From Hymenochaete sp. R1 (Eukaryota; Basidiomycota; Agaricomycetes; Hymenochaetales; Hymenochaetaceae): 64,000 bases of DNA. The position numbers and the translations under genes are program-made. The notes below the pieces were generated by a model, which saw nothing but the letters and a program-made list of their open reading frames with translations, had not been told where the DNA came from and made no database searches. The stretch covers positions 248,001 through 312,000 of the forward strand of contig JAFREE010000011.1 in NCBI GenBank assembly GCA_019400425.1, given 5' to 3'. Numbering within the stretch: position 1 is the stretch's first letter; the number at the start of each line of letters is the position of its first letter. Below, piece after piece: positions 267-42,776 of this stretch.

Positions 267-1427
267 ATGCCGGACTCCCCAACGAAGGGAACGTCGGAGC
301 TCGTCAATATCCCTATTGATCCGAGCCTTGTCAACCCGAACGGCGAGCCAAGCACAGGTAGCAAAAGCCAAAGGAAGAAGCGCAAACGCGGCACACAAGA
401 TGCTGGAGGTTCCCCTCATTCACCTTCACTTGGTAGCGGTTCGAAGAAGGCTCGCGGCTATGAGGAGGACTTAACAAAAGCAAAAGATACACTTCTTTGC
501 AATGCCCATGGAATCCATTCGGCTGAACTCGCCGTATTGGCCAAAGGCGGTGACGATGAGGACGAGATCTGCCGACTCTGGAGAGAGCTCGAGCTGTCCA
601 AGAAGCGGGTGGTTAATTCGCTAGACACGACGAAAAAATATGGCATTACCATGCCTTCGTCGATTTCGCCAATGTTCAAGGATGTGAAGCAGGCTATTGG
701 GACGTTACGAAAATATCTCACGAACCCTAGCCGTAAAACTGCGGTCCCAATATTCCGCAAAGATGTCCTCCCACACTACCATGTTGAACGCATGAAGCAG
801 CTCCAGTTGTTAAAGCTCACCGAAGAAGAGGCACAAAACCGTGCTGATTCTCACGCAAAGCTCGCGACTGATCGCCTTTCGACTTACGAGCTCAATGTAC
901 ATAAAGTCCACTGTGCTCGATGGCGTGTACTCGGTACCTCGGGCGACATCGAGGCCGTGATGGCGGCATGGAAAGAAGTTAAGAAGACTGAGAACACCCT
1001 GAGGGAACAGAAAAGCGCATTGAAAAAGAAACTCAACGACCAAATGCCCCAATCCACCAAAATCGACGACGACGAATATCGAAAGGTCGAAAAGGCACGA
1101 CGTTCATTGGCACAAGAAAAACGCTTCCTCGTCATGAAGTACAACAATTGGTTGAACGCAGGCGAAGACAAAGAGGAGAAGAAGAAAGTACTGGATTCCC
1201 ATCTGGAGAACGAGTATAATGTCAATCGCAGAGCAATTCTTGCGACTCTCAAGTACACCGATAAGGATGCTATGGACCGAGCAGACGCATATGATGTCTC
1301 TCGTAAAAGAAAGGAAATTCAATCTGCGGCCGATGAGTCGGCATTTTATGACAAAGAAAGCATGGAGACGTGGCTTACAGTTCCCCTAGAAGATATTTTC
1401 GGGGCAACAAGTGAGTGGAATATGTAG
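267..1427 (+). CDS. Orphan family A protein, two-module (copy A1)
   Basis: I do not recognise a known domain. The gene is a single exon of 386 codons from the ATG at 267; the open frame reaches slightly further upstream only through a TTG. The N-terminus (residues 1-60) is low-complexity with a basic cluster RKKRKRG, a likely nuclear localisation signal. The rest is charged, probably helical, and seems to be two copies of one module: NAHGIHSAELAVLAKGGD in the first half aligns with NVHKVHCARWRVLGTSGD in the second, and YHVERMKQLQLLKLTEEEA aligns with YNVNRRAILATLKYTDKDA. It is clearly paralogous to the genes at 2409 and 22079, with similarity along the whole length. A GTAAGT at about 30 and an AG near 80 could be a leader intron, and TATAAA lies near 90. 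The protein is probably real; its function is unknown. Confidence 0.75.
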   Translation: MPDSPTKGTSELVNIPIDPSLVNPNGEPSTGSKSQRKKRKRGTQDAGGSPHSPSLGSGSKKARGYEEDLTKAKDTLLCNAHGIHSAELAVLAKGGDDEDEICRLWRELELSKKRVVNSLDTTKKYGITMPSSISPMFKDVKQAIGTLRKYLTNPSRKTAVPIFRKDVLPHYHVERMKQLQLLKLTEEEAQNRADSHAKLATDRLSTYELNVHKVHCARWRVLGTSGDIEAVMAAWKEVKKTENTLREQKSALKKKLNDQMPQSTKIDDDEYRKVEKARRSLAQEKRFLVMKYNNWLNAGEDKEEKKKVLDSHLENEYNVNRRAILATLKYTDKDAMDRADAYDVSRKRKEIQSAADESAFYDKESMETWLTVPLEDIFGATSEWNM

Positions 1428-2408
1428 TATCAGTGAGATGTGATCATACCGTTCTTCGGGTGGGAGGCTTGTTGCATACTTCATATGACTTCTTCTTAAT
1501 TTATATTTAATACTTGTGTATAGCCGTTCTCTATGTAAGTGGCAATTAAGGTAAGCGTACGCGGGTATCGTCCATTCACTTTGTTATTAGCGCTCTCGTC
1601 CCTAAATAATTTGAAAAAGATGCGAGCATGTGTCAAAGCCCAGCACTGGGAAAATACTCATTGGAAAACACGATGCAACAAACTCACATTGTAGAACAGT
1701 GAAAGGTGTTTTTGAATACGATAAAACCAGAGTGCTACGATTCTGAGCTAGTGCTAGTCGAGAGTTTTACGCGATAAGTGCATTCCCTTCCAAGCTCCTA
1801 AGACTCACATATACAACCCGTGTGGGCTGGAAAGACTTACGTGAATTGAGGGCATGAATCCGAGCAAACGAGTCAATCTATGAATCACAATGAACCTCCG
1901 TATCGCAAAGTGATGGAAGCACCTACGTAAATCTCCGGAAATCACTACTTTGCAACCCTTGCCCGCTTCCCAAGCGCCCTATTTGAATCCATAAACTTTC
2001 ATATCAATCGACTCGGAGCAATCGAACTAACCGCCTGTACATAATTTGAACGGTTGCATTATTCATTCAGTGCATACTGCCGAGAGATCAGACACACAAA
2101 CCCCCTTTGCGGTTGCATCCGTCTTTCCCTGTAACGCATTATGGTGTTACAGTTCGTCAGATACGATACAGCCCAGTTATCTAGCTCGAACCGCATAAAA
2201 GCGTCGATCCTCTTGAAATATACTGCGCACCTCGAGCCAGTCTTCATCGCAGCTTAACATCCCTTCATTGACACCTTCTTTGTTGTCCATTGTCGCCTTC
2301 CTGATCCTATCTCTGCGGTTTCTCAAACATATCCGCCCAAGGTCTTTGAGAACTATAAGGATATAGCGTAAACTGTTAAACATTTGTCAAGTCATCAGCA
2401 CCAATACA
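1428..2408. other. Intergenic, between A1 and A2
   Basis: Holds the 3' flank of the first family A gene and the promoter and leader of the second. Only short minus-strand ORFs without recognisable features occur here. I see no repeat or RNA gene. Confidence 0.5.
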
Positions 2409-3611
2409 ATGTCAAAACCGTTAAGAGAACTTGCCCCAAAGCCCCCGACCATCCAAATCGATCCTTCCTTTGAAGAACCCGGTCCCGAAACCAAAGGAAA
2501 GAAACGAGCTCGACCTACACATGATATTGGGCGAGTCCCTCACCCATCCTCTCGCGGTAGCGGCTCAAGAGCGACATCCGGAGAGAACGTCATCGTCGTC
2601 GATACGAACGTGTCGAAAGCAAAGGAAACCCTTGTTTGCAATGCGCACGGACTGCACTCAGCTCACTTATCCGTACTTGCCTATGTCGGGGACGACGAAG
2701 ACGATATTTGTCAACTATGGAGAGAGCTCGAGTTGGCTAAGAAGCGAGTGGATAATTCGCTCGCAACAACGAAGAAGTTTGGCATAAGCATGCCCTGGTC
2801 GATTTCATCAGTATTTCGGGACGCTGCACGTGCTGCCAATGCACTAAGAAAATTCATCATAAAGCCTTCTCCCAGCGGCCAGTTGGTCCCAGATATCCAT
2901 AAGGACAGTCTTCAGGCCTATACCGCTGAGCGCATTAAGCAGCTCCAGGCCATAAATCTCACCGAAGAAGACGCACATGAAGGCGCCGTAGCTCACTCGA
3001 ACCGAGCTGCTGAGCGCTTTACACCTTTTGAGCTTAACGCGCATAAGGTCCTTAGTGCTCGATGGTGTATGCTTGGTACTTCAGGCGACATCAATGCTGT
3101 AATGGAAGCATGGAAAAGGGTCGAGAGGACTGAATGCACCCAGAAAAAATATCAGAAAAGTCAGCAGAATAAGAAAACCTTCTCCGAAGCGACTTCATCT
3201 CCGGAAAACGACGATCTACCTCCAGGAACCATCAGTGTCTTCACAGGAGTCGACGAGGAGGAATATCAGGCGGTGGAAAGGGCCAGAAATTCGCTGACGC
3301 TAGCGAGACGCATCTTCTCGCGTAAATACAACGAATGGTTGAACGCAGAAGAAAAATACAAGGAAGGAAAGAAGATAAGAGCCGATACTCACCTGAAGCA
3401 AGTCTATAACGTGAAACGAAAAAAAGCTCTTGACGAGCATTTGAAGTGCACTGACGCAGACGCCTTGGATAAGGCAAAAGCGTACAATGTCTCTAGTAAA
3501 GGGGGATGGACTGTAACTGTGGGTGAAGAATTGACGTTTCCCGCCGAAGAACACAAGGCCAGTTGGATTATGTTCTCTTTCGATGACGTTTCGGAGAAGG
3601 TCGAAGAGTAG
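2409..3611 (+). CDS. Orphan family A protein, two-module (copy A2)
   Basis: Single-exon gene of 400 codons, a tandem paralogue of the gene at 267. The start ATG fits the MSKP/MSNQP-type N-terminus seen in other members. Residues 25-60 hold a basic, Ser-rich segment (KGKKRARPT). Module 1 runs about residues 70-205 and carries NAHGLHSAHLSVLAYVGDDE followed by LWRELELAKKRV. Module 2 runs about 215-370 and carries NAHKVLSARWCMLGTSGD. Module 2 has an insertion of about 25 residues (around 255-285) relative to copy A1. No signal peptide, membrane segment or catalytic motif is visible. The function is unknown; a nuclear location is inferred from the basic cluster only. Confidence 0.75.
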   Translation: MSKPLRELAPKPPTIQIDPSFEEPGPETKGKKRARPTHDIGRVPHPSSRGSGSRATSGENVIVVDTNVSKAKETLVCNAHGLHSAHLSVLAYVGDDEDDICQLWRELELAKKRVDNSLATTKKFGISMPWSISSVFRDAARAANALRKFIIKPSPSGQLVPDIHKDSLQAYTAERIKQLQAINLTEEDAHEGAVAHSNRAAERFTPFELNAHKVLSARWCMLGTSGDINAVMEAWKRVERTECTQKKYQKSQQNKKTFSEATSSPENDDLPPGTISVFTGVDEEEYQAVERARNSLTLARRIFSRKYNEWLNAEEKYKEGKKIRADTHLKQVYNVKRKKALDEHLKCTDADALDKAKAYNVSSKGGWTVTVGEELTFPAEEHKASWIMFSFDDVSEKVEE

Positions 3612-4940
3612 ATCATGAAGTCCGGATGAACGAGACCCGTCCCATTCCGAGAAAGTTTGTCATTTCCTTCAAGTTAATTTCCGGCGTCTGCTTGCCCTCT
3701 GTCCATACCCATGAATCATGAAATAGCGCGTGCCATCGTTCGATAGCTTCATTTCTCGTATCGTTGTAATCTTCCTGGAATAGCGTCTTTTTGTTCGCCT
3801 ATCGAAATTTATATGCATCAGTCGTTAGCGCTGAGGGAAGGAACCTTTGCAAATATCAATGCAGCAAACTCACCGGGAAAAAACAAAGGCTTCGGAGCAT
3901 AAGGCGAGTGTTAGGCCCAAGTAGGATGCATTTCCTTTTTCATTGAAACCCGAAGTAGAGAGATCAGACAAGATCGGAAAGGCGGAGGCGCGTTAACAGC
4001 GTCTATTTCCAATGCTTCTCGAACAATGGCGAACATAGATAAAACTAGAGCACGTGGATGGTTATTTTCGGCGTACAAATGCGACTGCGCGCTGGCGCCC
4101 GAAGGCCGTGCACCGATGAGCTAGATGATCTCGATCACATCTGTCAGAGTCGTTTGGAAGGATTGCGCATGACCACCACGTTAGTACATGCGACCGGAAG
4201 TAGCAGTACTGCTCCAGAGCGATGACGACGAACCAAAATACTTGTGGCTTGCAATGATATCCTTTTTCATATCAAGCCCGCTACGCAGACGGCGAGCGCC
4301 ATAAGAAGCGCCAAAGAGATTTGCTGTGTTGAAATAAAAGCATAGATAATGAAGCAACGTACGTATCTCGGAACGGGAGGCGCCCGAGCAGGGGATGCTC
4401 TATATGTGGACCACACCAACACTTTTCTAATGATCGCTAGTGTCAGGTAGTGCCACAATCTCCGCAATGGGGGAGCCTTTTAGGTTTATTTGCAGAAAGA
4501 GTAATGTGGTAGCGCCGCCAAGAAGGATCGAAATAGGAGTGGAAAAGCAAATTTAGAAAGAAAGTGGATGAGATCCGAGTTGAAGGGTCTGAGGCGCTTC
4601 GAGAATCTGACTTTGAATCAAGAACCTTCGTAACTCCTCATTGCCAACGAGTTCCGTATATTGATCATGAGCTGGAGCGAGCAGGCCAGATTACTGGAGG
4701 GTTACGGTGGCTGATCATGACTGTTCGGAGCCAAAGAACCCGAGCGGGAGTCCAAGGGAAGAGATGTGATGGCCATTTATGGCAACTGTGGGTCCCGTGA
4801 TCGGCGCTTGGTGGTGGCTTTACAACCTACAACTACACGCTCCTCACCTCGCTCTTGTACCGCCTCTGTTCTTCTTCCTTTTCGCCCACATCCCTCTCCA
4901 TATCTTATCACAGCGACAACTTTTTCTTGACTACAAAGCG
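3612..4940. other. Intergenic, between A2 and GID4
   Basis: About 1.3 kb with no supported gene. Short ORFs at 4267-4467 (minus) and 4564-4800 (plus) lack recognisable features. The last 150 bases are pyrimidine-rich and are probably the promoter and leader of the GID4-like gene. Confidence 0.45.
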
Positions 4941-6564
4941 ATGCCGAGACCCCTCTTTGTTCCAGTAGACAATGTGCAGGCTGTCAATGAGCCGCAGCCA
5001 AAACAATGTCCCTCGTGTCAGAGGCTCGTTGCACAAGACGTAGCCTTGGCCGCTGACGATGCTCTTCCTTTGTGCTTGACATGTTGCGAGAACCTCAGGT
5101 CGTCTCAAGGACGACAAGTTCCTGGAGTTTGCGTGCCCAACTCGGGTTTTCTGTCTCCATTACACGACGGTGTTCGGGACGTTGGAGCGCCGCGCCTCGT
5201 CTCTCCAAGAAGGAGGCCTTCCTCGACAGTGATTGCCACTCAAAGTCACCCGGAAAGCATCATTTCGGAGGATCTTAACGATGAAGACGGCGGACGAACC
5301 GCCATTCGTCGCAGCCAGCTAATCCCCGACACCACCCGACACGCCGCCTCCACTGTCGCGCATGGTCCTGGTCCTGTTACCGTTCCTACTGCCACGCCTT
5401 CGCTTGATCGCTCACTTACGCAACGTGTATCCTTCCCTTCTCCTTCTCCTTCGACAAGAGACACATTCTCAGAGCCACAGTCTCCTATACACCAATTACA
5501 GCAACACTCTCCAAGACCTTCTTCGAGCGCATCCGGTCTCCACGCGAGTGACGAAGCATATCCGGAACCGGACCCACTGGTGGACATCACGAGACTAAGA
5601 GTCCGTCCAAGAGGGTTTAGGTGCCTACAACCGGGCGCCACATTCAAAGGTGTACAAAAGAGTGGAAGAAATAGTTACGATGTCAATGTGACACTGTTGG
5701 TATGTTTGTACCTTGCTCCATATCAATCACCAGCTTACACTTATTCACATTCCAATTCTTTGCCCCATAGAATGTCGACTTTGCTTCATCCTCTCTCTGT
5801 GGCTACCTCCGAATTCGTGGACTGACAGAAGGCTGGCCTGAACTCACCACATATTTTGATGCTGAAATCATTGGTACGCGATACGGCTTCGAAACGCAGA
5901 CACAAGAATGGGGAGCGAGTCGCCACGACGATTTGGTACACTGGGCTCGGTTCCCGGCGTTCCGAGACGTCCAAAAAGATCTTGTTGAGCCTGGCCTGAC
6001 TCTTCCCTCAAACACGAACCGGTCTGCCGTGTTCATGCGATGGAAGGAACGTTTCTTGGTCCCTGATCATCACGTACAGGACATTCTGGGAGCAAGTTTC
6101 GCTGGTAAGCCCCGATTTATCTCCTTGCTTCTGACCGATTTCTGACCTAGAGTTCATAATAGGCTTTTACTACGTCTGCGTGGAATTCGATCCGCAACCC
6201 GAAGTCTACCCTTCGCTAGGCCGTTCGACATCTCTCGACTCGTCTCTCGCTCCGTGTATCGAAAGTGGGTATGCACCAGGACCGTACCCTGCGATCGTCT
6301 CAGACCCGAATTCGGAACGGTGGAGATCTTGCGCTGAACCGAGAGAGCCAAGGGGCTGCCCGCCGGCCACAATGACTGGTTTCTACTTCCACCAGAACTC
6401 GGAGCCGTAAGTTTCCGATTCTCTGAACTCTACTTCCTCCCCTTCTCCATGGTTCTATTTTCTGTAATGAGAGCTAACCTTGTGCACTTTTTATTTTTAG
6501 TTATCAGCAATTGTCTTTGACGCATACCACGGAGCGATTCCACTCGAGCTTTGAGTTCCGTTGA
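4941..6564 (+). CDS. GID4: GID4/VID24-like substrate receptor of the GID (CTLH) ubiquitin ligase
   Basis: Homologue of yeast Gid4 (Vac_ImportDeg family), which recognises N-terminal degrons such as Pro/N for the GID/CTLH E3 that degrades gluconeogenic enzymes. Four exons: 4941-5699, 5771-6104, 6163-6406 and 6501-6564 (466 aa). Residues 1-235 are a fungal extension with CPSCQRL and CLTCCENL, a possible zinc-binding knuckle, followed by Ser/Pro-rich sequence. The beta-barrel domain starts near residue 235: GATFKGVQKSGRNSYDVNVT, then LCGYLRIRGLTEGWPELTTY, FDAEIIG, WGAS..DDLVHWARFP and GFYYVCVEF. The protein ends soon after the TGFYFH strand. The ATG at 4941 was preferred to the upstream in-frame 4779 because the intervening codons look like untranslated leader. 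Identity is confident. Confidence 0.92.
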
Positions 6565-9197
6565 GCGCGAGATCGGGGGTAGGAGTGTGTCATGCAGTAA
6601 CGGGTTTGGATGGTCGGATTGTGTGGTGTGGTTAGGGATGGGAATGGAAAACTTGGGTGGAATGCGATAATGATGGAGCAGGAATCATCTGAGGTGGCCG
6701 GGAGAAGTCAGTGACTAGACGGACGAAGAATGAGAAAGAGCATTTTAGAAGCGAGAAATCGTAGCTTCTTGAATATGGATTCCTTCTGGTCGGGCTGAAG
6801 AAACTAATGAGTCGGCGTGCAAGGAACGTGTGCTGGAGAAAGCAGATCAGTCGGACGATTCGGGAGACGGTCGCAGTACCAACGATCGATTGGTGAATCG
6901 ATCTTCATCGTTCAATAGCCACGCATCTCGCTCGGGATCAATAGGCCTCGGAGTGGCGTTGCGTGGTGCCGAAGGATGAAGAAGCAGCAAACGAAGGTCG
7001 AAGTGAGAAGGAAAGAAACAGAGAGACAGGGACGACCGAAGGCAGGTTGCAGCCGGAAGCTGGGTTTTTAGGTACCTCCAAGAACCTGCAGCATCGCTTA
7101 CACCGGTCGAAAGGTCTATTGTAAACCTATGCACGAAGGCGGTTGCAAAACCATAGATGGATTATCCCGTGAACTTCATCACCTCGTCGCACTCCGTGCT
7201 GCTCTCGTTTACGTTCGGTGACCCGTCCCTGACGGAGATGATGAGCGAAATGCGCATTGCTTGCAATGTATGCAGTGATATGATGCATTGTCACCCGCCG
7301 AACGCACTGCTCTATCTTTGGATACGCTTACACGCCATATCCCGAACTTCGATGGGATTGGATTCAGGTATGGGTTCTGCCTGGGTGGGCGAACGCTTGA
7401 ACTGGGACCCGCGAACCCGCGAACGAGCAAACAGGCGCCGAAGGTGGATTCGGATCCTGTGGGCGTTGCTCCAACGTTTTCTATCACTGCTGGGGACCAG
7501 CCTCGACCTCGAGTAGTGCGGTGGCTATGGTTATGTATGTATGGCTTCTTGTGGATCGCAGTGCTCCCGATCCTTTGTGCCATCTACTACGCTCAGAGTG
7601 GCTTTTGGCGCATGCATCCCGTCACCGCCATTTGTCGTCCTTTGGGTACGTGTCATTTCGCCGTGCTCGTGGGCGAAATGACGTTTCGTCTTCCCGCCCC
7701 TCCCTCATTCTTCGCGTTGTGTAGAAGGGCTCGTTTCGTCGTTCTTTCCGCCGTATTCGCAGCTTCGAGGTTATTTTGAGATAGACTCCGCGTGCGCTTT
7801 TGTGGGTCTCCCCCCGAGTCACAGGCTTTCTTCTCTCACTCCGGCTCCTCTTGTCTCCTCTCTTGTTCTCCACTTTCCATATGTCTATTATGGAGGGTCT
7901 CTTCACTTCTTCGTTACTTCTTCCAACTTTATCCTCTCTTGCACATTCATCATTCGAGTTTCCGTTTCTGTATCTTGTCTTCCACACATGCCTCTTCTGA
8001 TTCACCCACCCATACCGATCCAGTCCGTATACTGTACATTCACGTTCACGTCCATGTACGTTCCCACTCCCGATCTCCCCAGCCAATGTCCCCACTCGCG
8101 CCCACCTTTCACGTTCAACCGTATACCAAAATTCCATTTCATTCGCGTCTTTCTATCCTACGACATATTCACGAAAGAAAAAACCCAACGACAGACAGAT
8201 ACGCGAACACGAGATTGGGGAGGATTGACTTTTTTTCTTTCCCTTCTCGATTTTACTCATGTATAGGCGACGACCTTTTCCCTCCTCTCTTCTCTTTTTC
8301 CCCTCTTTTTTTTCATTCCCTCTGTTTCTTTCTTTCTTTTCTTTTCTTTCCTTCCAACTCCTCTTGTATTTACTTCGTCTATAATGCATAATCGATGACT
8401 TTTTTGCCCGATGGCCGGTAATCTCACTGACTAACGAGCTTTCTCTGACTTTTGATTGTTTGATTTCTAACAACACCACGCCATCTGTTCCAGGCCATGT
8501 ATTTCTTCCTACCCGTGCGTTGACCCCTTCCGACGTGTTGTATGGACTGCCGATTGAGTTACTTTGTTGCAGTAAAGCACTATGATTTGATATGCCGGCG
8601 GCAAAGCTGATTTTACCTCTTTTGAAGTTCCAATGAAGAGGATCTTCGAGTTCCAAGCTTTTTCTTCGATAAAAACTCAGAGCTCGAACAGATATAGTCG
8701 ACGTCGTCCTTGCCTGCTGGGATTGAAGATCTAGACTCGGAGCCTTAGGCTGTTGAAGTTGAGATCAATCGGCTCGGAGAACACACGAGATTGCTTGGCC
8801 GTTTTTTGCGTGAAACACTTGAATAAATTTTGATGACTGCGTTTTCTGTGTGTATGAAAAGGACTGGTAGATTCTCTAGTGACTAGAGAAATAGTAGAAA
8901 TATAAAATAAGAGTAGCTGAATAGTGCATGAGGTTGGTTGAGAGAGTGTCGGCCAAAAGGAGACAAACATGCACGCGGTCGCTTGTCGTCAATCTTATTT
9001 CCTCTCTCTCCGTCCTCCTTCCTCCTTCCCCTCCTCCCTTCATCCCACCTCTCCTCACTCTCGTCTTCCTCCATTTCCTCTCAACCACCTCTCTAACGCC
9101 TCACGAAACCCTCGACTCTCCTTCTTTTTCATCCAACCTACCCACCCATTCGACACTACAGAATCACAACAACCGCTCATCCACCATCGGTCCCGCA
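6565..9197. other. Long intergenic region with a weak ORF and pyrimidine-rich tracts
   Basis: About 2.6 kb between GID4 and casein kinase 1. An open stretch at 7279-7779 (plus) encodes one hydrophobic segment (around RWLWLCMYGFLWIAVLPILC) but has no ATG in a convincing position and no recognisable homology; overlapping frames on both strands are also open, so I do not call it a gene. From about 7800 to 8360 and 9000 to 9190 the plus strand is strongly CT-rich, as is common in promoters and leaders of well-expressed fungal genes. The long ORFs on either strand in these tracts are compositional artefacts. Confidence 0.45.
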
Positions 9198-12320: not shown

Positions 12321-12349
12321 CCTTTCTTTCTTTCTTTCTTTCTTTTTTT
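12321..12349. repeat. (CTTT)n microsatellite
   Basis: About seven CTTT units ending in a T run, in the 3' flank of the casein kinase gene. Confidence 0.9.
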
Positions 12350-12464
12350 CTTATGATTCGATCGATTTCGCTCGCTTGATAGCCCGCTCGATCCCCGACC
12401 CAATTTATCCCATTTACTCGAATTCAAAGTCCAATACCTTCAGTCATTTCTCGATCTTCCGTCT

Positions 12465-22078: not shown

Positions 22079-23245
22079 ATGTCAAACCAACCAAAGGAAG
22101 GTGCCTCATACTCCTTAAGCACCCCGCAAGATCCTTCCATTGTTGGGCATGGCACGGGCAGCACGGATAAAGGGAAAAAGCGAAAGCGACTGCACGATCA
22201 GCAGGATGTTGAGAGTGCTCGCAATCCCACCTCGCGTGGCAGCAGCTCAAAAGCAGCTCGTGGTGACCCAGCCCACGAAACAAGAGTCACAGATGCAAAG
22301 GAATTATTGCTTTGCAACGTCCACGGCCTCCACGCAGCCCGTCTGCATATATTGGCAGAGGGTGGGGCTGACAAGCCCAAGATATGTAACCTCTGGAGAG
22401 ATCTTGAATTGGCCCAGAAACGAGTAGCTGGATCAACCAGGACCATGAAGAAGAACCGGATAGCCATGCCTTTAGCATCTTCGCGGATGTTTCTTGATGT
22501 TGGAGACGCTGTCCATCCACTGCGACAATTTTTTGGCAACCTCAATTATGGGGACCAGGCTCCGGACTTCCGCAGCTTGGACAGCTTCGCGAAGTACCGT
22601 ATTGAACGCACAAGAGGGCTCCAGGACTTAGGGCTCAGCGAGGCTGATGCACTCGAACAGGCTGTAGCCCATGGGAATCGGGCCACTGATCGCCTCGCAA
22701 CTTCCGAACGGAACGCGGTAAAGGTCCACAGTGCACGGCTCCGCTTGCTCGGCACCTCTGGAGATGTCGAGGGTATAACGAAGGCGATAAAGGATGTCGA
22801 AAAGGCCATGAATACTCAGACTAAGTTCAAATCAACAGAAACTTCCATCGGCAGCACATCTCAACCCACAGAATTCGACAGAGAGTATGAAAAAGTTGAT
22901 AACGCCTGGTTTGAGTTGAAGAAACCGAGAGCCGTTTTTAAGAAGAATTACAAGATCTGGTCAGACGCTCCCGAAGAGGAAAAGGAAGATAAGAAGAAAG
23001 CACTCGAAGGCTGCGTTTCTGCTTCTAGCTTCTATCACATCTCTCGCCGACAGGTTCTTGAAACATTGGGATGGTCTGAAGATGAAGTCTTATCTAAGGC
23101 AGATGCTTACGAGGACTTATCCAAAGGAAAGAGGATCCGCGGTTTTTTGGATGATGATCTGGAATTTCCTGGCGGAGAAAACCATTTAAGTCGGTTTGAC
23201 ATTAATGTTGATGACCTTTTCTCTGATGACTTTTTCTCGACTTAA
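22079..23245 (+). CDS. Orphan family A protein, two-module (copy A3)
   Basis: Single-exon gene of 388 codons, a dispersed paralogue of the genes at 267 and 2409. The N-terminus MSNQPKEG is nearly the same as that of the family B gene at 40742 (MSNQPEQS). It has a basic cluster KGKKRKRLHDQ. Module 1 has NVHGLHAARLHILAEGGAD and LWRDLELAQKRV; module 2 has NAVKVHSARLRLLGTSGDVE and ends near LETLGWSEDEVLSKADAY. The junction between modules, LGLSEADALEQAVAHGNRA, closely resembles the C-terminal motif of family B (LHVSEADALAYG), which is part of the evidence that A is a doubled B. No catalytic or membrane features are seen. Confidence 0.75.
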   Translation: MSNQPKEGASYSLSTPQDPSIVGHGTGSTDKGKKRKRLHDQQDVESARNPTSRGSSSKAARGDPAHETRVTDAKELLLCNVHGLHAARLHILAEGGADKPKICNLWRDLELAQKRVAGSTRTMKKNRIAMPLASSRMFLDVGDAVHPLRQFFGNLNYGDQAPDFRSLDSFAKYRIERTRGLQDLGLSEADALEQAVAHGNRATDRLATSERNAVKVHSARLRLLGTSGDVEGITKAIKDVEKAMNTQTKFKSTETSIGSTSQPTEFDREYEKVDNAWFELKKPRAVFKKNYKIWSDAPEEEKEDKKKALEGCVSASSFYHISRRQVLETLGWSEDEVLSKADAYEDLSKGKRIRGFLDDDLEFPGGENHLSRFDINVDDLFSDDFFST

Positions 23246-31770: not shown

Positions 31771-32000
31771 AATACTCTAACCTGGTGCGAACTTACCGTC
31801 ATGCTGTTTTTTTTTTCAAAGTTGAAGTACTGAAATCGAATTTCTCATAGTACCAGTTGTTGAATTTATGTTATGCCTGCTTACTAATCGATCGACATTA
31901 CTATATCAGCCTCATTCGACGTCATCAATTTTGCCGACGCTTTTTGAATCAACGTTTCTTGAGTCTGAACCTTCACTGTCAATCACTTACTGCACTCACC

Positions 32001-33889: not shown

Positions 33890-34140
33890 ATAGTCAAATG
33901 GGCAATGCATTACCACTGCATGTAAATCTTGACACTTGATAAAATTTGTTACCTACAGTACCATTGACCGAATGTCGCCTCGCATAGAATAAGGTGTCTG
34001 CCGCACGAAACAAAAGTGTCAAAAGGAACACATGTTGAAAAAGCACGTATACTATAAGCATGGCGTAATTATTAATTCACTGGGGGCGGCTTGGGTAGTC
34101 GTAGCGGACGGGCGCGTCGCGACGCGCTCAGCCCAAACAA

Positions 34141-35782
34141 ATGATTCGCCGTTTGATCGCCTTCACTCACCTCGTCCTTTGTTCACGGTCTTCACCAGCA
34201 CTTCTCAAACAACGCCCGTTCACCAATCTATCGTTTTCAACCCAACTTCTCGGCACAACTCTCACAAAGATGCCCCGACCATCTACCAAGTCCGTATCTA
34301 AACGAAAAGCCTCCGATAGTGACAACGACGCTCCAAACGACCTCGAGGAGAAAAATGTACGCGCAAAGGCTAAGAAGAGCAAATCCAGTATAAGTGAAAG
34401 CCAGGCTGCTGTTGCAGAGGGAGAAGGTTTAGCGTCGAACGGACAACCGACGAACAAAACGTTGCCTGATGTGATAAAGTTTGAGGCGAAGCCGGAGGGG
34501 TCGGTGCGCGTTGCTTCGTGGAATGTGTCCGGGCTGGCTGCGTGTAGAAAGAAGGTACTTTTGTCTCTTTGGATATTTTGTTTTGAACATAGCTCAATTC
34601 ATCTGTCTGTGCTCATTCATCAAGGGGTTCAAGTCCTACGTCGAAGCCGAGGAAGCGGACGTATTAATTATTACCGAGACGAAGGTAACAGGATATCCAT
34701 TGCATTTATGCATTTCTCGCTCATTAAATATGTAACACAACAGGTGAATGAAGAACCTCACATCGAAGAACTGAATGAACGGTACGAGCACCGTTACTGG
34801 AGCGCAGCTGCAAAAAAAGGCTATGGTACGTACTGATCTCCAAAGCTTTCCTATCTTCACACCCTCCGAGTCTAAACTTTGTTCTTTTATTTCCCTCCTG
34901 CCCCATCGTAGCTGGCACTGCCGTCTTCTCAAAACTCAAGCCCATCGACGTCAAGACAGATCTTCCCGGACATCCAGACAAGGACGCCGTCAAAGGACGT
35001 ATCCTTACACTCGAATTCGAAAAGTTTTTCCTCGTTGCGACGTATGTGACGAACGCCGGACAGGGACTGAAGGTTTGTTCTCTTATAGTTGCTCTAATAT
35101 ATGGCGTATCGAATCCTAATGCCTCAATCCTGTCTCATTGACAGACATTGAAGGAGAAAGAAGTCTGGAACGAGCACTTCGAGCGGTATATTCGTGAACT
35201 GGACGCGAAAAAACCTATCATATGGGGCGGTGATCTGAATGTTGCACCCACTGAACTTGGTTTGCCCCTTTCCTAATTCTCATAAATTTTCGGGCTTTAC
35301 GATATCTAACCCATTCCTTATCTCCTCTACCCCTCCCCTCTGATAGACTTGAGCAACCCCAAACCAAACTGGAATAAGACTCCAGGATACACAGAATCAG
35401 AGACGAAAGCCTTCGCGCGTATTGTTGGCGAGTCGACAGGTGCCAATGATAAACAAAAAAGTGATAAGTCAACATCGAAAGAGAATGCGACCGGGTTCGT
35501 GGATGTGTGGCGTCATTTACACCCTTCGCTCCGACATTACACGTATTTCGGGTATAGGTTCAACTGTCGGGCGAAAGGGATTGGATGGAGGCTCGACATG
35601 TGTGAGTATCGTTGGATCTGTGGTTCTTTTAATTCTGCAGCCTAGAGCTAACGAATATCCGTTTTGAAGATGTTTCAAGTCGAAGGATACTAGATAACGT
35701 GAAGACGTGCGAAATTAGGAATGAGATTTACGGGGCGTCGGATCATTGTCCTGTCATACTTGAAATTGAAGGTCTTTTATAG
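34141..35782 (+). CDS. AP endonuclease, exonuclease III type (APE1-like)
   Basis: Cleaves DNA 5' to abasic sites in base excision repair. Seven exons: 34141-34554, 34625-34684, 34744-34825, 34912-35072, 35145-35259, 35347-35601 and 35670-35782 (399 aa). Active-site motifs are SWNVSGL (Asn), IITETK (Glu), AKKGYAGTAVFSK, GGDLNVAP (Asp and Asn), RLDMYVSS and GASDHCPVILEI (Asp-His at the C-terminus). Residues 1-43 (MIRRLIAFTHLVLCSRSS...) are rich in Arg, Ser and Leu, lack acidic residues, and look like a mitochondrial presequence. A second ATG at 34270 starts MPRPSTKSVSKRK, a basic nuclear-type N-terminus, so two forms are possible. It lacks the long C-terminal zinc-finger tail of Apn2. Confidence 0.93.
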
Positions 35783-36030
35783 CTGAGGTACATCTTGTCG
35801 TCATTGAAAAATTTGTATAATAATGGTGGTATGTGCTTTGGAAATATTTATTGAATGCACACGGCACGAGGTTGACTTGTTCAACGTGGCTCCATGACAC
35901 TACATAGGAACATGACTTGATAGATATTGACAATCGACGTATATCCCTTCGCTACTCTTGAAACTAACTCTAAAAGCAGCAGAGCGGGATGAAACCATGG
36001 CCACTAAGTCAGTTCACCGGGACTGGAGTT

Positions 36031-36684
36031 TTAATCCTCCACCCCCACATTCCATAAACCTCGTTCCATTGTCGCAATATCACCTTCGCTCGACTCCCCA
36101 ATCTTATCAGCCACACCCTTCGTATCGTCCCCATTCCCATACGCAAGAGCGTCCTCCGCCTCTATCCCTAACTCTTCCAGTATTTGACAGCGTTCCTTGT
36201 CATACGAATCAAGTATCTTCGTCAAGTCGCCGCTCACTTTAGGGTTTGAGCTCGAAGCCTGACTGCTGAGACTGGTCTTTATGTGCGACATCCGGCCAAA
36301 CTTCTCTGTGACAAGCACGAAATTGCGGATACCACTAGTTGGTAGCGACTGCGGTGGATTGACGGTGAACTCGAGGCGCATTTTCCGAGTGTGCTCGCGG
36401 AGTCGTTTGCTCGTCATTATCACAGGTGACCAGATAGCGTCAATCACCTTCTCATCTTTATCTGGTGTCCCAAGGATCTTCATCCAGACACGGTGAAGGG
36501 TGAGACAGTGCTTGCGGTAAATATCAATTCGTTTATCCTCCCTGCGCAAACGCTTTGCCTCTTCGTGTTGCTCGATTTCTTCCTGCGTCCTTCCCCTTTT
36601 ACGGCCAGCTTTGCTCCCAGAGCTCGCAGTGCTACCAAGAGGGACTGCAGCTGATGCATTTCCCTGTTCAGGTTGATGGGACAT
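36031..36684 (-). CDS. Orphan family B protein, single-module (copy B3)
   Basis: Single-exon gene of 217 aa with start MSHQPEQGN, which matches copies B1 and B2. The basic N-terminal segment GRKRGRTQEEIEQHEEAKRL could be a nuclear signal. The module runs about residues 50-185: YRKHCLTLHRVWMKILGTPD, IWSPVIMTSKRLREH, a divergent Ser-rich middle, and YDKERCQILEELGIEAEDAL followed by AYGNGD. The LGT and the final E-DALAYG motifs are the most conserved across B and recur in family A. The last 30 residues are acidic. The function is unknown. Confidence 0.72.
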   Translation of the reverse strand: MSHQPEQGNASAAVPLGSTASSGSKAGRKRGRTQEEIEQHEEAKRLRREDKRIDIYRKHCLTLHRVWMKILGTPDKDEKVIDAIWSPVIMTSKRLREHTRKMRLEFTVNPPQSLPTSGIRNFVLVTEKFGRMSHIKTSLSSQASSSNPKVSGDLTKILDSYDKERCQILEELGIEAEDALAYGNGDDTKGVADKIGESSEGDIATMERGLWNVGVED

Positions 36685-37245
36685 TGATCTAAGTAAGTAA
36701 AATAAGTATTTGCATTAGCGGACGAAGGGCAGCGGCCATAAACTGGCCTTAATCGAAGAAAGAGTTTAGAGGTACAAATTCACAATGACTGGCCGTCTCA
36801 AGCAAACGACGATGCGAGGTGTGATGGATGATATGGTCTAAGGTTGTGGCGGGATAGAGAAAACCGAGCGCGGTTTAGCAGATAGTTAGTCAGAGCTTTA
36901 GTTGGGCTGGATACAATAACGAGGAAGGACACTCACTAAGAAGCGATGCTTAAGACGGAAGAAAAGTCCCCAGATGCAAGAAGGCGGGACACATGACACT
37001 GCTAGAAGTCTATGCAAGAGGTAGAAGGTCAAAATTATATACCTCTTGATTTCAACTTTGCTTCGTTGCGCTTTAGTTTGCCAACGTGATAAAGATCAAG
37101 CCTCGAAGCAGCGTCGTATAAGTAGAAGCGTATCCGTCGAAACTGAACTCTCTTGGTCTGGTCTTGATGCACACAACACGACGTCTAGTATTCAGTACGA
37201 CTCCATATAAATTAGAGAGCAATGCGTGAAAAAAACTCGTACAGA
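36685..37245. other. Promoter and leader of B3; VMA8 3' flank
   Basis: No gene. Contains the promoter box described separately at 37030-37072 (minus strand) and the 3' end of the VMA8 transcript. Confidence 0.55.
37030..37072 (-). promoter_or_regulatory. Family B promoter box with TATA-like element (B3)
   Basis: On the minus strand AGCGCAACGAAGCAAAG (37072-37056) is followed 10 nt later by GAGGTATATAATTTT. The same pair precedes copies B1 and B2. The B3 start codon is about 370 bp downstream. Confidence 0.55.
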
Positions 37246-38253
37246 TCAGAAAATAACATCTTCATCTTTGGTGGCCAGCAAGTCCGCTCCTCCGGTGTCC
37301 CCACTCTCAACGGGTGGCAAGTCAATATCCAGCCCATCTTTCCTCCTTTCCTCCACCAATCGCTCCTTCTCCTTGTCTGCAATCGCCGCATCCCTCTTTT
37401 TCTTTCCCTGCACCTTCTTCAACCTAAAGAACTCCTCACGATCCATTTCGTCAAGCTCACTCATGATATACTTAATCGTGTTGTCCAGTTTGGGAATGAC
37501 AACATGTTCGATGGCGTTTACGCGTCGGTTGGTGAGACGTATGACTTCGTCGAGGATCGTGAAGGCGGTTTGGAGCGAAGCAAGTTCAACGAGGGTCTCG
37601 ACAGCTTTGGCGTAGGTCTCGCGGGCTTTGAGGACTTGTTGGCCTCCACGGCCGAGCCCTGCCAGGCTGAACTCTGTTTGTACACCGTGAAGCGTCAATA
37701 TGAGACCGCATTTTACGAATGATCAAAGATGGGGACGGAGAATAGTTTAAGGAAGAAACGGGTTATTGAGATGCATTCACAGAACAAACACGCCACGCAC
37801 CAGTTCCAGCAACCCGATCAACCTCGAACGTCGGAAGCAGCACTCCCGATACGTTCTCCTGCTTCGCACGCACTCGGAATGAAGCAGATTTGGCCTGCTC
37901 TTGGAGAAGGTAACCGATATCGCTGGATGTTGCATAGTTGACCTCTGCGAGTGAGAAGGAAGCGGCTTGCATAACCTTGCCTAGCTTCATCTTGGCCTGG
38001 ACGTGCACATGCCGACGAGGATGTAATAATGCGAACAAGTCGTAATCAGTAGTAGATTACGCTAAGACGAGTTCTATCGCGATGTGCTTACATCCTGGAC
38101 TTTCTTAAGGATCGCTCTGAACCTGGTCGAGAGTGCGTCTCGCTTCTTAGCTAAAAGTGAATGGCCAGTCTGAGCGCCTTTCAGCCTAAGCTTGATATTA
38201 GTGAGGGCCATTCGAGTAGGGAAGACATTTTCTCGAGGGCCCGTTCCCGACAT
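37246..38253 (-). CDS. VMA8: V-type H+-ATPase subunit D (VMA8)
   Basis: Central-stalk rotor subunit of the V1 sector, coupling ATP hydrolysis to proton pumping into the vacuole. Three exons: 38253-38092, 37996-37801 and 37673-37246 (261 aa). It begins [20 protein letters not shown] and continues [79 protein letters not shown], the signature of the family, and [17 protein letters not shown]. The second intron (37674-37800, 127 nt) has its acceptor directly before EFSLAGLG, which fits the family without extra residues. An upstream in-frame ATG at 38316 is not needed. The 326 bp to the divergent LEA2-like gene should serve both. Confidence 0.95.
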
Positions 38254-38579
38254 CGTGAAGGTCGACGGTGAGGTGCGTGCGGAGACGAAAGAGAGAACTG
38301 GCCAAGTTCGCCACAAGATTCAAGAGGTTAGGTGATTACGTCATACACACCCTTCCGCTGTTCTTCTGACCGAAATTACTTTAAATTTTAATCTATTCTA
38401 CTGGAAAGTACCCAGATCAGATGAAAGCGTGCATATATCCAAATACAAGAGACATCTAAGCATAAATTAGCGTGTTGAAGAGGTAGAGCGGCAACAAAGG
38501 AGCATGGCGGTGCGCGTGCGCAGTCAATTTCGTTTCGCACTCCCTGTTTCCGTCTCCATCATCTCTTTCTCCAACCACC
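38254..38579. promoter_or_regulatory. Divergent promoter region VMA8/LEA2-like
   Basis: 326 bp between divergent start codons. No clear TATA or repeat is seen. Confidence 0.45.
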
Positions 38580-40012
38580 ATGTCCTACCGGGACCCATAC
38601 TATTCTCAAGAGCACACCTACAATGACTCTCCAGACTATGACCCATACGGCAACAACTACCAACGGCACCCCACCTACGACCAGAGCGGGTATACTGATG
38701 ACGACCGTGATCGTTTTGGAGCACCGGGGGATGGCAACAGGTACGGGGAGGCACCTGTACGTTCTGGGACGCTAAGCGACCGCCCGAGAGAGAAGGGTAG
38801 ATATGATGATGCAGGTTTCCCTCCTGCGTTGGGGCCACCTAAGTGAGTAAAGCTGAGCTAGGGAAAGGAGAGCAAATAATTTCGGGAATCGCTGACGTCG
38901 CTCGCGCGCATTCACTTACAGGCATACCGGCGGGTTCCGGATATGGCGTAAAGACCAGTATAATGGCATGTGGACAAGAGTGCGTGTTTTCCTAAGCTTG
39001 GACGTAGTTGTGGATTATGAATGATTCTGTATATATAGGGCGGGAGGGGCAAATGCTGCCTGCGATTCTTCTGTTGCTCGCTTCTCATCTTCATCTTCCT
39101 CCTTGTCAGTATCATTCTGACTCTCGGCATCGTAAGTTTCGTTCTTCCGCTCTCTCTTAAAGGAATTAACAACTGTGCTTGGAAGTGGATTCGCCCACCC
39201 GACATTGCCATCAATAGCGTCGGGTTGAATTCGACGGGCGGAAGTCCAGTGCGTGTACTATCGAATACCAATATTACTCTTGAACTTGAACACACTATAA
39301 ATGTCAGGTTTCCGTTTCATCATCATCGTTCACCCTCAATCTGGGTGTAAGCATAACGTATGTAACCTCTGATGGTGCACTGTACCGGGGCTCAAACATT
39401 TTTACAGGGTTGACAATCCGAACTATTTCGATGTCGACTTCAAGGAGATCAAAGTTGAAGTGTGTAAACCTATCTTTTCGTCCCCGTCATTTTAGCAGAT
39501 AGCCCCTTGAAACTGTTCTGACGAAACATTTGCGCAGTTGTCATATCCAACGAACAACATGGACCTTGGCGGTGGCCAGAAAGACAACATCAAGTTCCGC
39601 TCAAATACCGAAACGACATTCAACTTTCCCTTCGAGTTGGATTACAAGACATCTGAAGACACAAATATGGTTGTCTTGCAGGACCTGTTGAGCAAATGCG
39701 GTATCACAGGTGGAACGAAGCAAGATATCACAGTCGATTATAAGATTACAGTAAGTGTTGAGTTAGCTTCAGTGGCTTATCATTGTTAACGCGATTTGAT
39801 GTGTGCGATGAAGCTCGGCCTCAAAATTCTATTCTTCAGTATCCCACCGTCGTTTAGCAGCTCATTCAGCTTCGAATGTCCCATTTCGCAGAGCGATATT
39901 GAAGTTCGTAAATCCACAACTTTGATCGTTTCCCAGATGTGATTACTGAACCTTTGACTCGTAGGGGTTGTTGCAAGGCTCGGGGTTGAACATACCAGAA
40001 GTGAGCGGCTGA
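38580..40012 (+). CDS. LEA2-like single-pass membrane protein
   Basis: Nine exons: 38580-38842, 38922-38979, 39039-39131, 39186-39248, 39308-39357, 39408-39459, 39538-39750, 39814-39903 and 39965-40012 (309 aa). Residues 1-90 are a hydrophilic Tyr/Asp/Gly/Pro-rich cytosolic tail. A Cys-rich juxtamembrane motif GKCCLRFFCCSLL leads into a membrane helix (about 115-137, IFIFLLVSIILTLGIWI). The lumenal part has the LEA2 pattern: INSVGLNSTG, FTLNLGVSITVDNPNYFDVD, IKVELSYPTN and ITVDYKITLGLKILFFSIP. Fungal proteins with this layout are related to vacuolar-membrane LEA2 proteins and plant NDR1/HIN1-like proteins. The exact role is unknown. The juxtamembrane cysteines are candidate palmitoylation sites. 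Confidence 0.82.
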
Positions 40013-40741
40013 GTCCCGTTCTAACGTGGTTGTATCATCTGCGCTAGTCTTGCTCAAAAGACATATTTTCGTGCATCTGATTAATCATGCAAACACTCTC
40101 ATCACTACCTCTTCTTATTCATGGACAACGTAATTCATAGTAAATTGTTTTTCAATACAAAATGGACTTGACTCGCGTCGATCTTTCTTCCTTTACTCGT
40201 TGACTTTGATTGCTCTGATTCGATCCGAGGCCCGGATTCGAAACAAGGCCGCGCTGTGGGTCCCTCGATTCCTTCGAAGAAATTTTACCAGTCATATCCC
40301 CGTTCCTTGATTTTCTCTCTCCGCTGACGTGCTGCATCAGCAAACGAAAGCAAAGTAAAGTCGAGAGGTATCTAAATCTACACCCTCGTCACTCTTGTAC
40401 AGATCCCCAACAATGTCCTGTCTTTTACTTTTTTGCAACGAGCACCTGCTCTTCCCTTTTATTCCTGTCATTCACAGTGAGTACCCTTGTTCGTCAATAC
40501 TCACACCTTGATTCAAACGCTGACCGACTGACCACAGTATTGCGAGTAGTCACCTGATACATCAGCTATCTACTCCTCGCCACATTCAACAAATACCAGC
40601 TCACTCATTTCGATCTTGAAAGCCACCACCTACTCGTCCAAGTCTGACCATTGTAAGTCATCATCCCTGCCTTAGCTTTCTATGTCGCTGTTTTGAATCA
40701 GAGCAATAAACTCCTACAGATACACACCTTCTATTGATTTA
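40013..40741. other. Promoter and spliced leader of B1
   Basis: No coding gene. Besides the promoter box it holds two good candidate leader introns, 40477-40537 (GTGAGT...CACAG) and 40653-40719 (GTAAGT...TACAG), so the B1 transcript probably has a spliced 5' UTR although its coding region has no intron. Confidence 0.5.
40338..40377 (+). promoter_or_regulatory. Family B promoter box with TATA-like element (B1)
   Basis: CAGCAAACGAAAGCAAAG (40338-40355) is followed 9 nt later by GAGAGGTATCTAAAT-type sequence ending at 40377. It differs at one of 18 positions from the box upstream of B2. A second shared word, CTCGCCACATTC, lies at 40577-40588. Confidence 0.6.
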
Positions 40742-41377
40742 ATGTCAAATCAACCAGAACAGAGTCAGGCTTCTTTGGATACTCTTGGTCTTAGTACCCC
40801 GAGCTCCAGCAAAAGCTGCACTGAGAGAGGGAAGAGGAAAAAGGACGACTCTAGCGGTCCCCCGCCAAAATGTGTGCAGAAAGGATTGCCCTCTGCGACG
40901 TACGACCTTTATCACAAGAGATGCAAAGCGATGTATCAACGCCGATCGCTAATTCTCGGAACACCAGCTAGAGATGGGACGGCAAGCCAAATCATCGATA
41001 TCATCGAAAAAGTGTGGTTACCTATGGATAAACTACGTGTAGACAGGAACTCTGTTGTTTCTACTTTTCGCAAACACCCTGAGGCATCACTTCCTAACCC
41101 TAAGCTCCCTCGGTACAATACGATTGAAGCCAAGTTCGGAGAATTGGTGACTGCAAAGGCTACTCTTAGCAGAATGGTAAATACTCTGCCGGAATCCGGA
41201 TGGCAGACATATGTTGACGAATATGAAAAGGTGAGCTGCGCATTGTTGAAAGAACTGCATGTATCGGAAGCAGATGCACTTGCGTACGGGATGGGGGACC
41301 TGTCAGAGCCACCTTTCGAGGAGACAGAGGAAGAGCAGTTTGAACGGGGTTGGGTGGATTTTATTGATGATACGTAG
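40742..41377 (+). CDS. Orphan family B protein, single-module (copy B1)
   Basis: Single-exon gene of 211 aa beginning MSNQPEQSQ. Residues 25-45 hold the basic cluster RGKRKKDD. The module covers about residues 55-195: YDLYHKRCKAMYQRRSLILG followed by TPARDG, then VWLPMDKLRVDRNSVV, and YEKVSCALLKELHVSEADAL followed by AYGMGD. The C-terminal 20 residues are acidic. It is paralogous to the genes at 42090 and 36031 and, more distantly, to each half of the family A proteins. No known domain is recognised. Confidence 0.72.
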   Translation: MSNQPEQSQASLDTLGLSTPSSSKSCTERGKRKKDDSSGPPPKCVQKGLPSATYDLYHKRCKAMYQRRSLILGTPARDGTASQIIDIIEKVWLPMDKLRVDRNSVVSTFRKHPEASLPNPKLPRYNTIEAKFGELVTAKATLSRMVNTLPESGWQTYVDEYEKVSCALLKELHVSEADALAYGMGDLSEPPFEETEEEQFERGWVDFIDDT

Positions 41378-42089
41378 GTAGAATCTCAGAACCTACTGTC
41401 GAAGTGCACGGGGGAAATGGCATAAGTTAACCTCATTTATATATAAAAAATCTCAAGCCGAGGCTGGCTACTAGTAAACCGATGAGTTGGCAATCTAGCT
41501 CATGCTTTTTGCTTAGACGACGCTATCCAATCTAGCTTTTGAATAAAACCCCTAGCTGACCATCTCAATCTTAATCATAATCATCCCATTAGCTACTGGT
41601 AGAAGACATCTCCAGCACGTAGAGTCAATGGGCAAAGTTGTGCTAGTACTCACTGGCATTTACTTCCTAAAGTATTATGTCAGCAAGTACTAAGAGAGCA
41701 AAGTGCATGCATACATGTACTTCCACTAGTATTACTTTTTCAGCCTTCTTTGCTGAGGGATTATAGCCAGCAAGCGAAAGCAAAGGCGCTTGACCAGTAT
41801 AAAAACCTTCCCCCCTACCGGGCCTACCCTTCAAAGCATTGTCATAAGCTTTCTTGCAACCAGACCTGCTCTTATATTCTCCGAGCGGGTGCTTTCCAAT
41901 CCTAAGATCACCCTCATATTTTCACGACTCAGTCTATCAGTCAACTTCTCGCCACATTCTGTGACTTCTGTTGATCGACGAGATCTAACCAAGTCAGTCC
42001 TTCCTTCACTCTGCCCAGTTCTTTGATCTAAGACTAAAAATAGGTTTTCTCCGTAGCCCCTTATCACTCATTTCACCCCTGCCATATCG
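41378..42089. other. Intergenic between B1 and B2; B2 promoter
   Basis: About 700 bp without a gene. The 3' half holds the B2 promoter box and, at 41948-41959, the word CTCGCCACATTC also found in the B1 leader. Confidence 0.5.
41768..41805 (+). promoter_or_regulatory. Family B promoter box with TATA box (B2)
   Basis: CAGCAAGCGAAAGCAAAG (41768-41785) followed 12 nt later by TATAAAAA (41798-41805). Box and spacing match the B1 and B3 promoters. Confidence 0.65.
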
Positions 42090-42776
42090 ATGTCTGAGCA
42101 AACGGAGCAGCAGGCAGCGGCCTCAGTCCCTTCGGCTTCCGTCGGGAGCGGTACGAAGAGGAAGAGGGATGGAAGAAAAGACGATCCCAATGACTCGAAT
42201 GAGCCTCGGTCGAAGCGCCCGAGCCAGAGCAAAAAACTCAGTACGTTCGAGACTTACTGCTTGAAGTGCAAAGACGTGCATCGTGGCCTCATGAAGATTC
42301 TCGGAACAACGGATGCGGACGCAAACGCTATCAACGCACTTTGGGGACCAGTAGCTGTAGCTAAAGACCGACGCAACCACGTCATTCGTAATCTGAGAAA
42401 ACAAGGTACGACGGTTGATACGGATAATAATGTACCGGATAGCGGCATTCCAAATTTTGGTGTCGTCAACAAGATGTTCAATGAGTCACTTTCGAAGGCA
42501 AAGACACAAGTTACCACATACGCTCAGAAGAATAGCGATAGTGATGTCACTCAAAGGCTTGTAAACGACTATCACTCGAAACGACAAAGCATTCTAGACA
42601 ATTTAGGTATTAGCGCCGAAGAAGCCCTTGCATATGGGGACGACACTGCTTCACCGGAAGTGACTGAGAAGGTGATGAACGCAGGTGCAGATGCTGCACA
42701 AAGTGGCACAGGAGAAGGAGCATCGACTCTTTCTGTGCCGAACCAAGAAGCTGCATCTGAGCAGGTCGGTAACTGA
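42090..42776 (+). CDS. Orphan family B protein, single-module (copy B2)
   Basis: Single-exon gene of 228 aa starting MSEQTEQQ. It has the basic cluster GTKRKRDGRKDD near residue 20. The module runs about residues 50-190: YCLKCKDVHRGLMKILGTTD, LWGPVAVAKDRRNHVIRNLR, and YHSKRQSILDNLGISAEEAL followed by AYGDD. The C-terminal 45 residues are a low-complexity Ala/Ser/Glu tail absent from B1. B1 and B2 lie in tandem and share upstream sequence, so they look like a local duplication. The function is unknown. Confidence 0.72.
   Translation: MSEQTEQQAAASVPSASVGSGTKRKRDGRKDDPNDSNEPRSKRPSQSKKLSTFETYCLKCKDVHRGLMKILGTTDADANAINALWGPVAVAKDRRNHVIRNLRKQGTTVDTDNNVPDSGIPNFGVVNKMFNESLSKAKTQVTTYAQKNSDSDVTQRLVNDYHSKRQSILDNLGISAEEALAYGDDTASPEVTEKVMNAGADAAQSGTGEGASTLSVPNQEAASEQVGN

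What the first reader, a model, noticed from the sequence alone, without database searches (positions are those of the whole stretch)
267..42776. A shared orphan module links six dispersed genes (families A and B)
Seen in sequence: genes at 267, 2409 and 22079 (A) and 40742, 42090 and 36031 minus (B) share an MSxQPxx-type start, a basic N-terminal cluster, an H-x(6-9)-LGT-x-x-D motif, a W-x(4)-KR motif, and a final Y-x-x-x-R-x-x-L-x-x-L-x-[IV]-[ST]-E-x-DAL motif. B proteins (211-228 aa) hold the set once, A proteins (386-400 aa) twice. Inference: an undescribed, lineage-specific nuclear protein family that expanded within about 43 kb among housekeeping genes.
Basis: partly seen in the sequence, partly recalled or inferred. 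Interest (0 to 1): 0.8.

Follow-up and report, generated by a model that had tools for sequence, protein, structure and literature searches.

The report
Fungal orphan family, one or two modules
Six genes in this fungal stretch are relatives that carry one or two copies of the same undescribed helical protein module, and with their other copies in the same genome they show how such a family grows by doubling, trimming and swapping modules, though what the proteins do is still unknown.

Summary
The core observation holds. The six ORFs are where stated, and profile searches show that A proteins hold twice the module that B proteins hold once. The motif strings as written fail: W-x(4)-KR and the final motif match 0 of 6 proteins. 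The family is larger than reported: I count 19 gene-like members and 3 remnants on contigs C13, C113, C212 and C312 of one 27.8-Mb genome. No Pfam hit passed a cut-off shown; no solved structure matched convincingly. AlphaFold2 gives the B3 module a confident helical bundle.

Six two-module genes off C13 look three-exon: in 12 of 12 modules an AG acceptor lies just before the nine codons ending in the conserved Tyr of helix 4 (1 of 19 C13 modules). The 12 gene-like C13 members are single open frames. So off C13 an intron-bearing module doubled inside a gene. Whether C13's A proteins stem from that same doubling is open: the tree mildly prefers two separate doublings (all a-modules as one clade: p-AU 0.027). 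B is either the undoubled form or a trimmed A.

Function is inferred: nuclear adaptors with a basic N-terminus and an acidic tail. Lineage restriction could not be tested; no fungal proteome is held.

The parts
267..1427 (+). A1, two-module protein, 386 aa, one open frame
474..866 (+). A1 module a (residues 70-200)
879..1307 (+). A1 module b (residues 205-347)
   Evidence: a second run of helices in the model
2409..3611 (+). A2, two-module protein, 400 aa
2613..3008 (+). A2 module a
3021..3500 (+). A2 module b
22079..23245 (+). A3, two-module protein, 388 aa
22289..22684 (+). A3 module a
22697..23125 (+). A3 module b
36031..36684 (-). B1, one-module protein, 217 aa
36124..36525 (-). B1 module
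40742..41377 (+). B2, one-module protein, 211 aa; the B of the window least like A
40904..41302 (+). B2 module
42090..42776 (+). B3, one-module protein, 228 aa; 93% identical protein P0001 in a metagenome
42249..42650 (+). B3 module; AlphaFold2 helices 52-72, 78-104, 123-147, 151-172, 176-183; mean pLDDT per ten residues 85-96 except 73 and 69 at residues 101-120

Best explanation
These are paralogues of one undescribed fungal protein family. Each protein has a basic N-terminal segment, one or two helical-bundle modules of about 120-165 residues, and in most members an acidic tail. History (inferred): the old module was one bundle whose gene had a phase-0 intron in front of helix 4. Off C13 that module doubled inside one gene and carried its intron along, giving the three-exon form predicted on C113, C212 and C312. 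On C13 the genes are intronless; their module doubled too, and the tree mildly favours a separate doubling there, after which A and B spread by local duplication. B is then the undoubled form, or an A that lost its middle. Mechanism (inferred, the weakest step): nuclear adaptor proteins. The basic cluster brings the protein to the nucleus or to DNA, the bundle binds a partner, and the acidic, partly aromatic tail is a docking or activation peptide. Two-module members can bridge two partners, while one-module members bind only one.
For: Homology: HMM iteration from A alone or from B alone reached the same 25 ORFs of 1635 (output partly cut); decoy test. Two modules in A: a and b halves find each other above decoys; the A1 model has two successive runs of helices. 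Intron: in six genes off C13, 12 of 12 modules have AG just before the nine codons that end in the conserved Tyr, against 1 of 19 C13 modules and 386 of 3726 codons (10.4%) ending in AG in the 12 C13 genes. Intronless C13: 12 of 12 gene-like members are one open frame. Separate doublings: in a tree of 26 A and C modules all C13 modules fall on one side of a branch (94/95), and holding all a-modules together costs 11.0 log units, p-AU 0.027. Constraint: 16 of 18 pairs gave a finite NG86 dN/dS, all 0.22-0.52; two were saturated. Charge: N-terminus net positive in 18 of 19 members, tail net negative in 17 of 19. K[KR]x[KR] in the first 75 residues in 14 of 19, against a mean of 2.8 and a maximum of 8 in 500 shuffles.
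Against: No localisation, binding or expression data exist here; basic clusters and acidic tails are common. The 94/95 branch is not starred, modules are short and divergent, and conversion between a and b within a branch would give the same tree. Part-wise HMM scores (no decoys) make B a mosaic of module a (helices 1-3) and module b (helices 4-5), which fits a trimmed A better than an undoubled form. No RNA-seq supports the splice models; the acceptor in question was the only frame-compatible one for 5 of 12 introns, one of several for 5, and outside the range searched for the 2 of C312g1. C113g4 is a one-module gene off C13 without an intron in its frame. The A1 model is modest (mean pLDDT 68.3, pTM 0.45).
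Confidence: 0.42

Rival explanations
1. One doubling only: a three-exon two-module gene was the ancestor of all two-module members. The C13 branch lost both introns, most simply through a cDNA, and B arose from an A (or from an exon-2-skipped transcript) by losing the middle: helices 1-3 of module a joined to helices 4-5 of module b.
For: With HMMs of the seven C13 A proteins, helices 4-5 of B favour module b in 5 of 5 (93.5 against 17.4 bits summed) and helices 1-3 favour module a in 4 of 5 (83.0 against 47.9); with all 13 two-module genes it is 5 of 5 for both parts. B with all C13 a-modules is a branch at 85/87. Exon 2 would be phase 0 at both ends.
Against: All a-modules as one clade: p-AU 0.027. 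With HMMs of the six genes off C13, helices 1-3 of B favour module b in 5 of 5 (58.0 against 40.3). B with the C13 b-modules is not rejected (p-AU 0.102). Poly(A) and target-site marks were not looked for.
Confidence: 0.33
2. A fast-evolving conflict family (self/non-self recognition, a meiotic driver or similar) in which copy number, module number and gene conversion create diversity under selection.
For: Remnants at C13:178333, C13:218717-219453 and C113:123310. Between C113g2 and C113g3 eight successive 100-bp blocks around exon 1 are 80-97% identical, the block before them 75%, the other eleven 39-63%. Identities of the 18 pairs compared are 30-66%.
Against: Pairwise dN/dS of 0.22-0.52 means purifying selection on average. 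No known conflict domain in Pfam passed; PADLOC was not scanned.
Confidence: 0.2
3. The shared motifs are chance or compositional similarity of charged, helix-rich proteins, and A and B are unrelated.
For: The literal motif strings match poorly; some B-to-A-half scores lie near the decoy ceiling, and B2 alone does not reach A.
Against: Iteration converges; bridge member A199 scores 33.9 and 27.0 against a decoy maximum of 9.9.
Confidence: 0.02

Closest known systems
Focal adhesion targeting (FAT) domain of FAK/Pyk2 and other four-helix bundles (PDB)
Retrogenes / cDNA-mediated intron loss (recalled)
   Same: Intronless members beside members with predicted introns.
   Different: Poly(A) and target-site marks were not examined, and the tree does not show that C13 genes come from the three-exon form.
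Locally expanded orphan families of fungi (recalled)
   Same: No Pfam domain above a cut-off shown, local arrays, remnants, wide divergence.
   Different: Module number varies between one and two, with the intron at the same place in both modules of the spliced genes.

Membership tests
One homologous A/B family | Profiles built from one group find the other above shuffled decoys | tested here: met
   (iteration): B HMM above the best decoy for 5 of 6 window A halves; A-half HMMs above it for B3 (both) and B1 (one), not B2
   3, 3, 0 and 0 of 6 for the four strings
Any curated Pfam-A family | Hit above the curated cut-off | tested here: not met
   all rows of the six window proteins lie below their cut-offs; 16 members scanned, cut-offs given for the first only (all below); best E among the others 0.0033
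FAT-type four-helix bundle | Fold match well above unrelated bundles | tested here: inconclusive
Retrogene branch (C13) | No intron where the spliced paralogues have one | tested here: met
   12 of 12 gene-like C13 members are one open frame; AG at the place in 1 of 19 modules. A220 has no ATG before its basic cluster, so its start is unresolved
Retrogene branch (C13) | Descent from the three-exon two-module form | tested here: inconclusive
   all a-modules as one clade p-AU 0.027; mosaic of B points the other way
Retrogene branch (C13) | Poly(A) tract and target-site duplication | not tested
   Not searched
Lineage-specific orphan family | No homologue in other fungal lineages | not testable with these tools
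   No fungal proteome or named fungal genome collection; some searches found only P0001-P0003
Nuclear protein family | Nuclear localisation | not testable with these tools
   Only basic clusters seen

The most novel reading that the evidence does not exclude
The two-module architecture evolved twice in this one genome, once from an intron-bearing and once from an intronless one-module gene, with B keeping the single state. Pairing of the bundle is then itself selected: the protein works as a tethered dimer that bridges two nuclear partners, and the one-module B proteins are its natural half-size competitors, while conversion of a single module reshuffles partner choice.
Probability: 0.2. Interest if true: 0.62.

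Novelty: new member of a known kind. Interest (0 to 1): 0.4.

Why it matters
Orphan families rarely show how they were built. Here one genome holds one-module and two-module genes, a module pair that shares one intron place, an intronless branch, a conversion-like tract that spans one module, and remnants. It also gives a module that can be turned into an HMM for fungal genomes, and a testable guess that doubling of a bundle changes an adaptor from one-handed to two-handed.

Tried and rejected
Chance similarity was rejected. Weak Pfam scores (Nuf2_DHR10-like E 1.5e-4 in one of 16 members, 22.3 bits under its cut-off of 28.4; UTP6_C 0.0033 in one) were set aside as likely coiled-coil noise. PDB profile hits were not accepted: best E 0.16 (Z-DNA-binding protein) and 0.063 (syntaxin). 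phmmer of A3 against PDB found nothing up to E 10. Fold matches were judged generic. IMG/VR scans with B3 and P0003 found no relative. A repeat search of window 35000-44000 found none of 25 bases or more. DNA self-comparison of C13:168001-339590 at E 1e-6 showed A246/A1/A2 and the second family, but nothing between B genes, although B2 and B328 group at 100/98 as proteins. Literature: (listings with the openings of abstracts; 4, 1, 1 and 0 papers; none opened) held nothing that I recognised as this family; that is no proof that it is unpublished. Species: not identified. STE3 has two match groups on contig C293 and STE2 none (where the tool warns that nothing rang anywhere); this fits a basidiomycete but does not prove it. 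For the activation-tail idea only charge and WFYL counts were computed.

My first version of the history (one doubling, then cDNA) was demoted after the tests; it is now the first rival, and the odds were changed for that reason. Corrections: one search's HMM part scores were stale and are discarded (redone; only its trees are used). One search failed and was redone. One search stopped at its last step; only its completed part is used. In one search the A halves overlapped by up to 11-12 residues, so one search replaced it. Typed models differ a little from later splice sites: C113g1 was typed four residues short at its second junction (377 against 381 aa), C212g1 carries six residues more at its first, C312g1 carries three more at its second and keeps its probable in-frame first intron (18 codons).

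Full report
What was checked. The six reading frames are present at the stated coordinates and lengths. The strings do not define the group, but the proteins are homologous.

Homology. BLASTP links A and B weakly (e.g. B3-A1 E 1.1e-5 in a six-protein database). HMM iteration from the three A or from the three B proteins reached the same 25 ORFs of 1635 (part of the output was cut). With non-overlapping modules and 5000 shuffled decoys the B HMM put 5 of 6 window A halves above the best decoy, two only just; the A-half HMMs found each other; B2 was reached only by B HMMs. An earlier run with slightly overlapping halves put only 2 of 6 A halves above the best of 2000 decoys for the B HMM, and profile-profile probabilities were 93-95% for the three pairings.

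Extent. The window is C13:248001-312000 of a genome of 27.8 Mb in 336 contigs. I count 19 gene-like members: on C13 seven two-module (A246, A1, A2, A3, A197, A199, A220) and five one-module genes (B1, B2, B3, B326, B328); on C113 three two-module genes (g1-g3) and one one-module gene (g4); on C212 one and on C312 two two-module genes. A220 lacks an ATG before its basic cluster. Three loci look like remnants: C13:178333, C13:218717-219453 and C113:123310. Weaker hits at C13:222350 and C13:337131 and C34:1374 were not counted. The genome tool calls its counts lower bounds.

Anatomy. The B3 model (10-row alignment of window sequences and P0001) has helices 52-72, 78-104, 123-147, 151-172 and 176-183 at high confidence; mean pLDDT is 75.4 over the whole chain because both ends are low. 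The A1 model shows two successive runs of helices, mean pLDDT 68.3, pTM 0.45. The models were not superposed. N-termini are net positive in 18 of 19 members and tails net negative in 17 of 19.

Introns. GT-AG introns in the genes off C13 were enumerated. In six genes both modules have AG just before the nine codons that end in the conserved Tyr of helix 4: 12 of 12. In one search this acceptor was the only frame-compatible one for 5 introns and one of several for 5; for the two of C312g1 it lay outside the range then searched and was found at the predicted place afterwards. As a control, the same codon ends in AG in 1 of 19 C13 modules, and 386 of 3726 codons (10.4%) of the 12 C13 genes end in AG. 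Donors remain ambiguous for some introns, most of all module b of C113g1. For these genes the simplest reading is that the module had its intron before it doubled.

One doubling or two. In a tree of the 26 modules of the two-module genes, all C13 modules stand on one side of a branch (94/95), and a tree with all a-modules held together is 11.0 log units worse, p-AU 0.027. With B added, all C13 modules still stand together (85/89) and B with the C13 a-modules forms a branch (85/87); B with the C13 b-modules is not rejected (p-AU 0.102). The 32-module tree put B next to the first modules of A199/A197/A220 at 92/79; for helices 1-3 alone this was 78/77. So the data mildly favour separate doublings on and off C13. 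Conversion between a and b within a branch, or long branches, could give the same picture.

Origin of B. Part-wise HMM scores without decoys: with the seven C13 A proteins, helices 1-3 of B sum to 83.0 for a and 47.9 for b (4 of 5 favour a), helices 4-5 to 17.4 for a and 93.5 for b (5 of 5 favour b). With all 13 two-module genes it is 5 of 5 in the same directions. With the six genes off C13, helices 1-3 favour b in 5 of 5 (58.0 against 40.3) and helices 4-5 favour b in 4 of 5. If all two-module genes shared one three-exon ancestor, B would amount to exon 1 plus exon 3; if the doublings were separate, B may be the undoubled form and the mosaic a matter of position. This is unresolved.

Exchange between copies. 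C113g2 and C113g3 were compared in 20 blocks of up to 100 bp: eight successive blocks around exon 1, intron 1 and the start of exon 2 are 80-97% identical, the block before them 75%, the other eleven 39-63%. This looks like gene conversion of about one module. P0002 and P0003 resemble this same exon by eye, and P0001 is a 93% relative of B3, so related strains or species occur in metagenomes.

Selection. NG86 ratios for 18 chosen pairs: 16 finite, all 0.22-0.52; two saturated; 12 of the 16 finite dS values exceed 1.5, so the numbers are rough.

Known families. Pfam: all rows of the six window proteins lie below cut-off; of 16 members, the best E was 1.5e-4, below its cut-off. PDB by sequence: nothing convincing. 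PDB by fold: generic bundles. Protein database: three searches, 3 hits in all (one search scored only the 7992 candidates sharing most words). No row marked as the window's own protein appeared in these lists, so this genome seems not to be covered there, and a lack of hits says little about other fungi.

Verdict. A real, constrained fungal gene family without a Pfam entry that fits, with one or two copies of a helical module and a partly readable history. Its function is inferred: nuclear adaptor proteins, perhaps with an acidic docking or activation tail. It is a new family of a familiar kind, not a new kind of system.

Noticed in passing
window 59653-60636 minus and 61973-62809 minus (C13:307653, 310171), also C13:320522-321415 and 323451-324230 plus: A second local family of charged proteins without a Pfam hit (two members scanned): four match places in this genome, all on C13; the first and third are 81% identical over 800 bp of DNA in opposite orientation. 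The two right-hand matches each have one TAG inside.
   Followed up: partly
C113:120.4-122.4 kb versus the gene at C113:139.9-141.2 kb (L032, L033, L039): Conversion-like tract of eight 100-bp blocks at 80-97% identity covering exon 1, intron 1 and the start of exon 2 of two family members.
   Followed up: partly
window 58965-59037 plus: tRNA-Phe (GAA) beside the second family; similar 73-76-bp stretches at C13:224815 and C13:324462.
   Followed up: no
C13:326858-327523 minus (B326): The N-terminus holds KKRGRPP, which resembles an AT-hook core (recalled, not tested).
   Followed up: no
G000 contig C293:208856-212266: Two neighbouring STE3-type pheromone-receptor match groups, as expected of a basidiomycete mating locus.
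   Followed up: no
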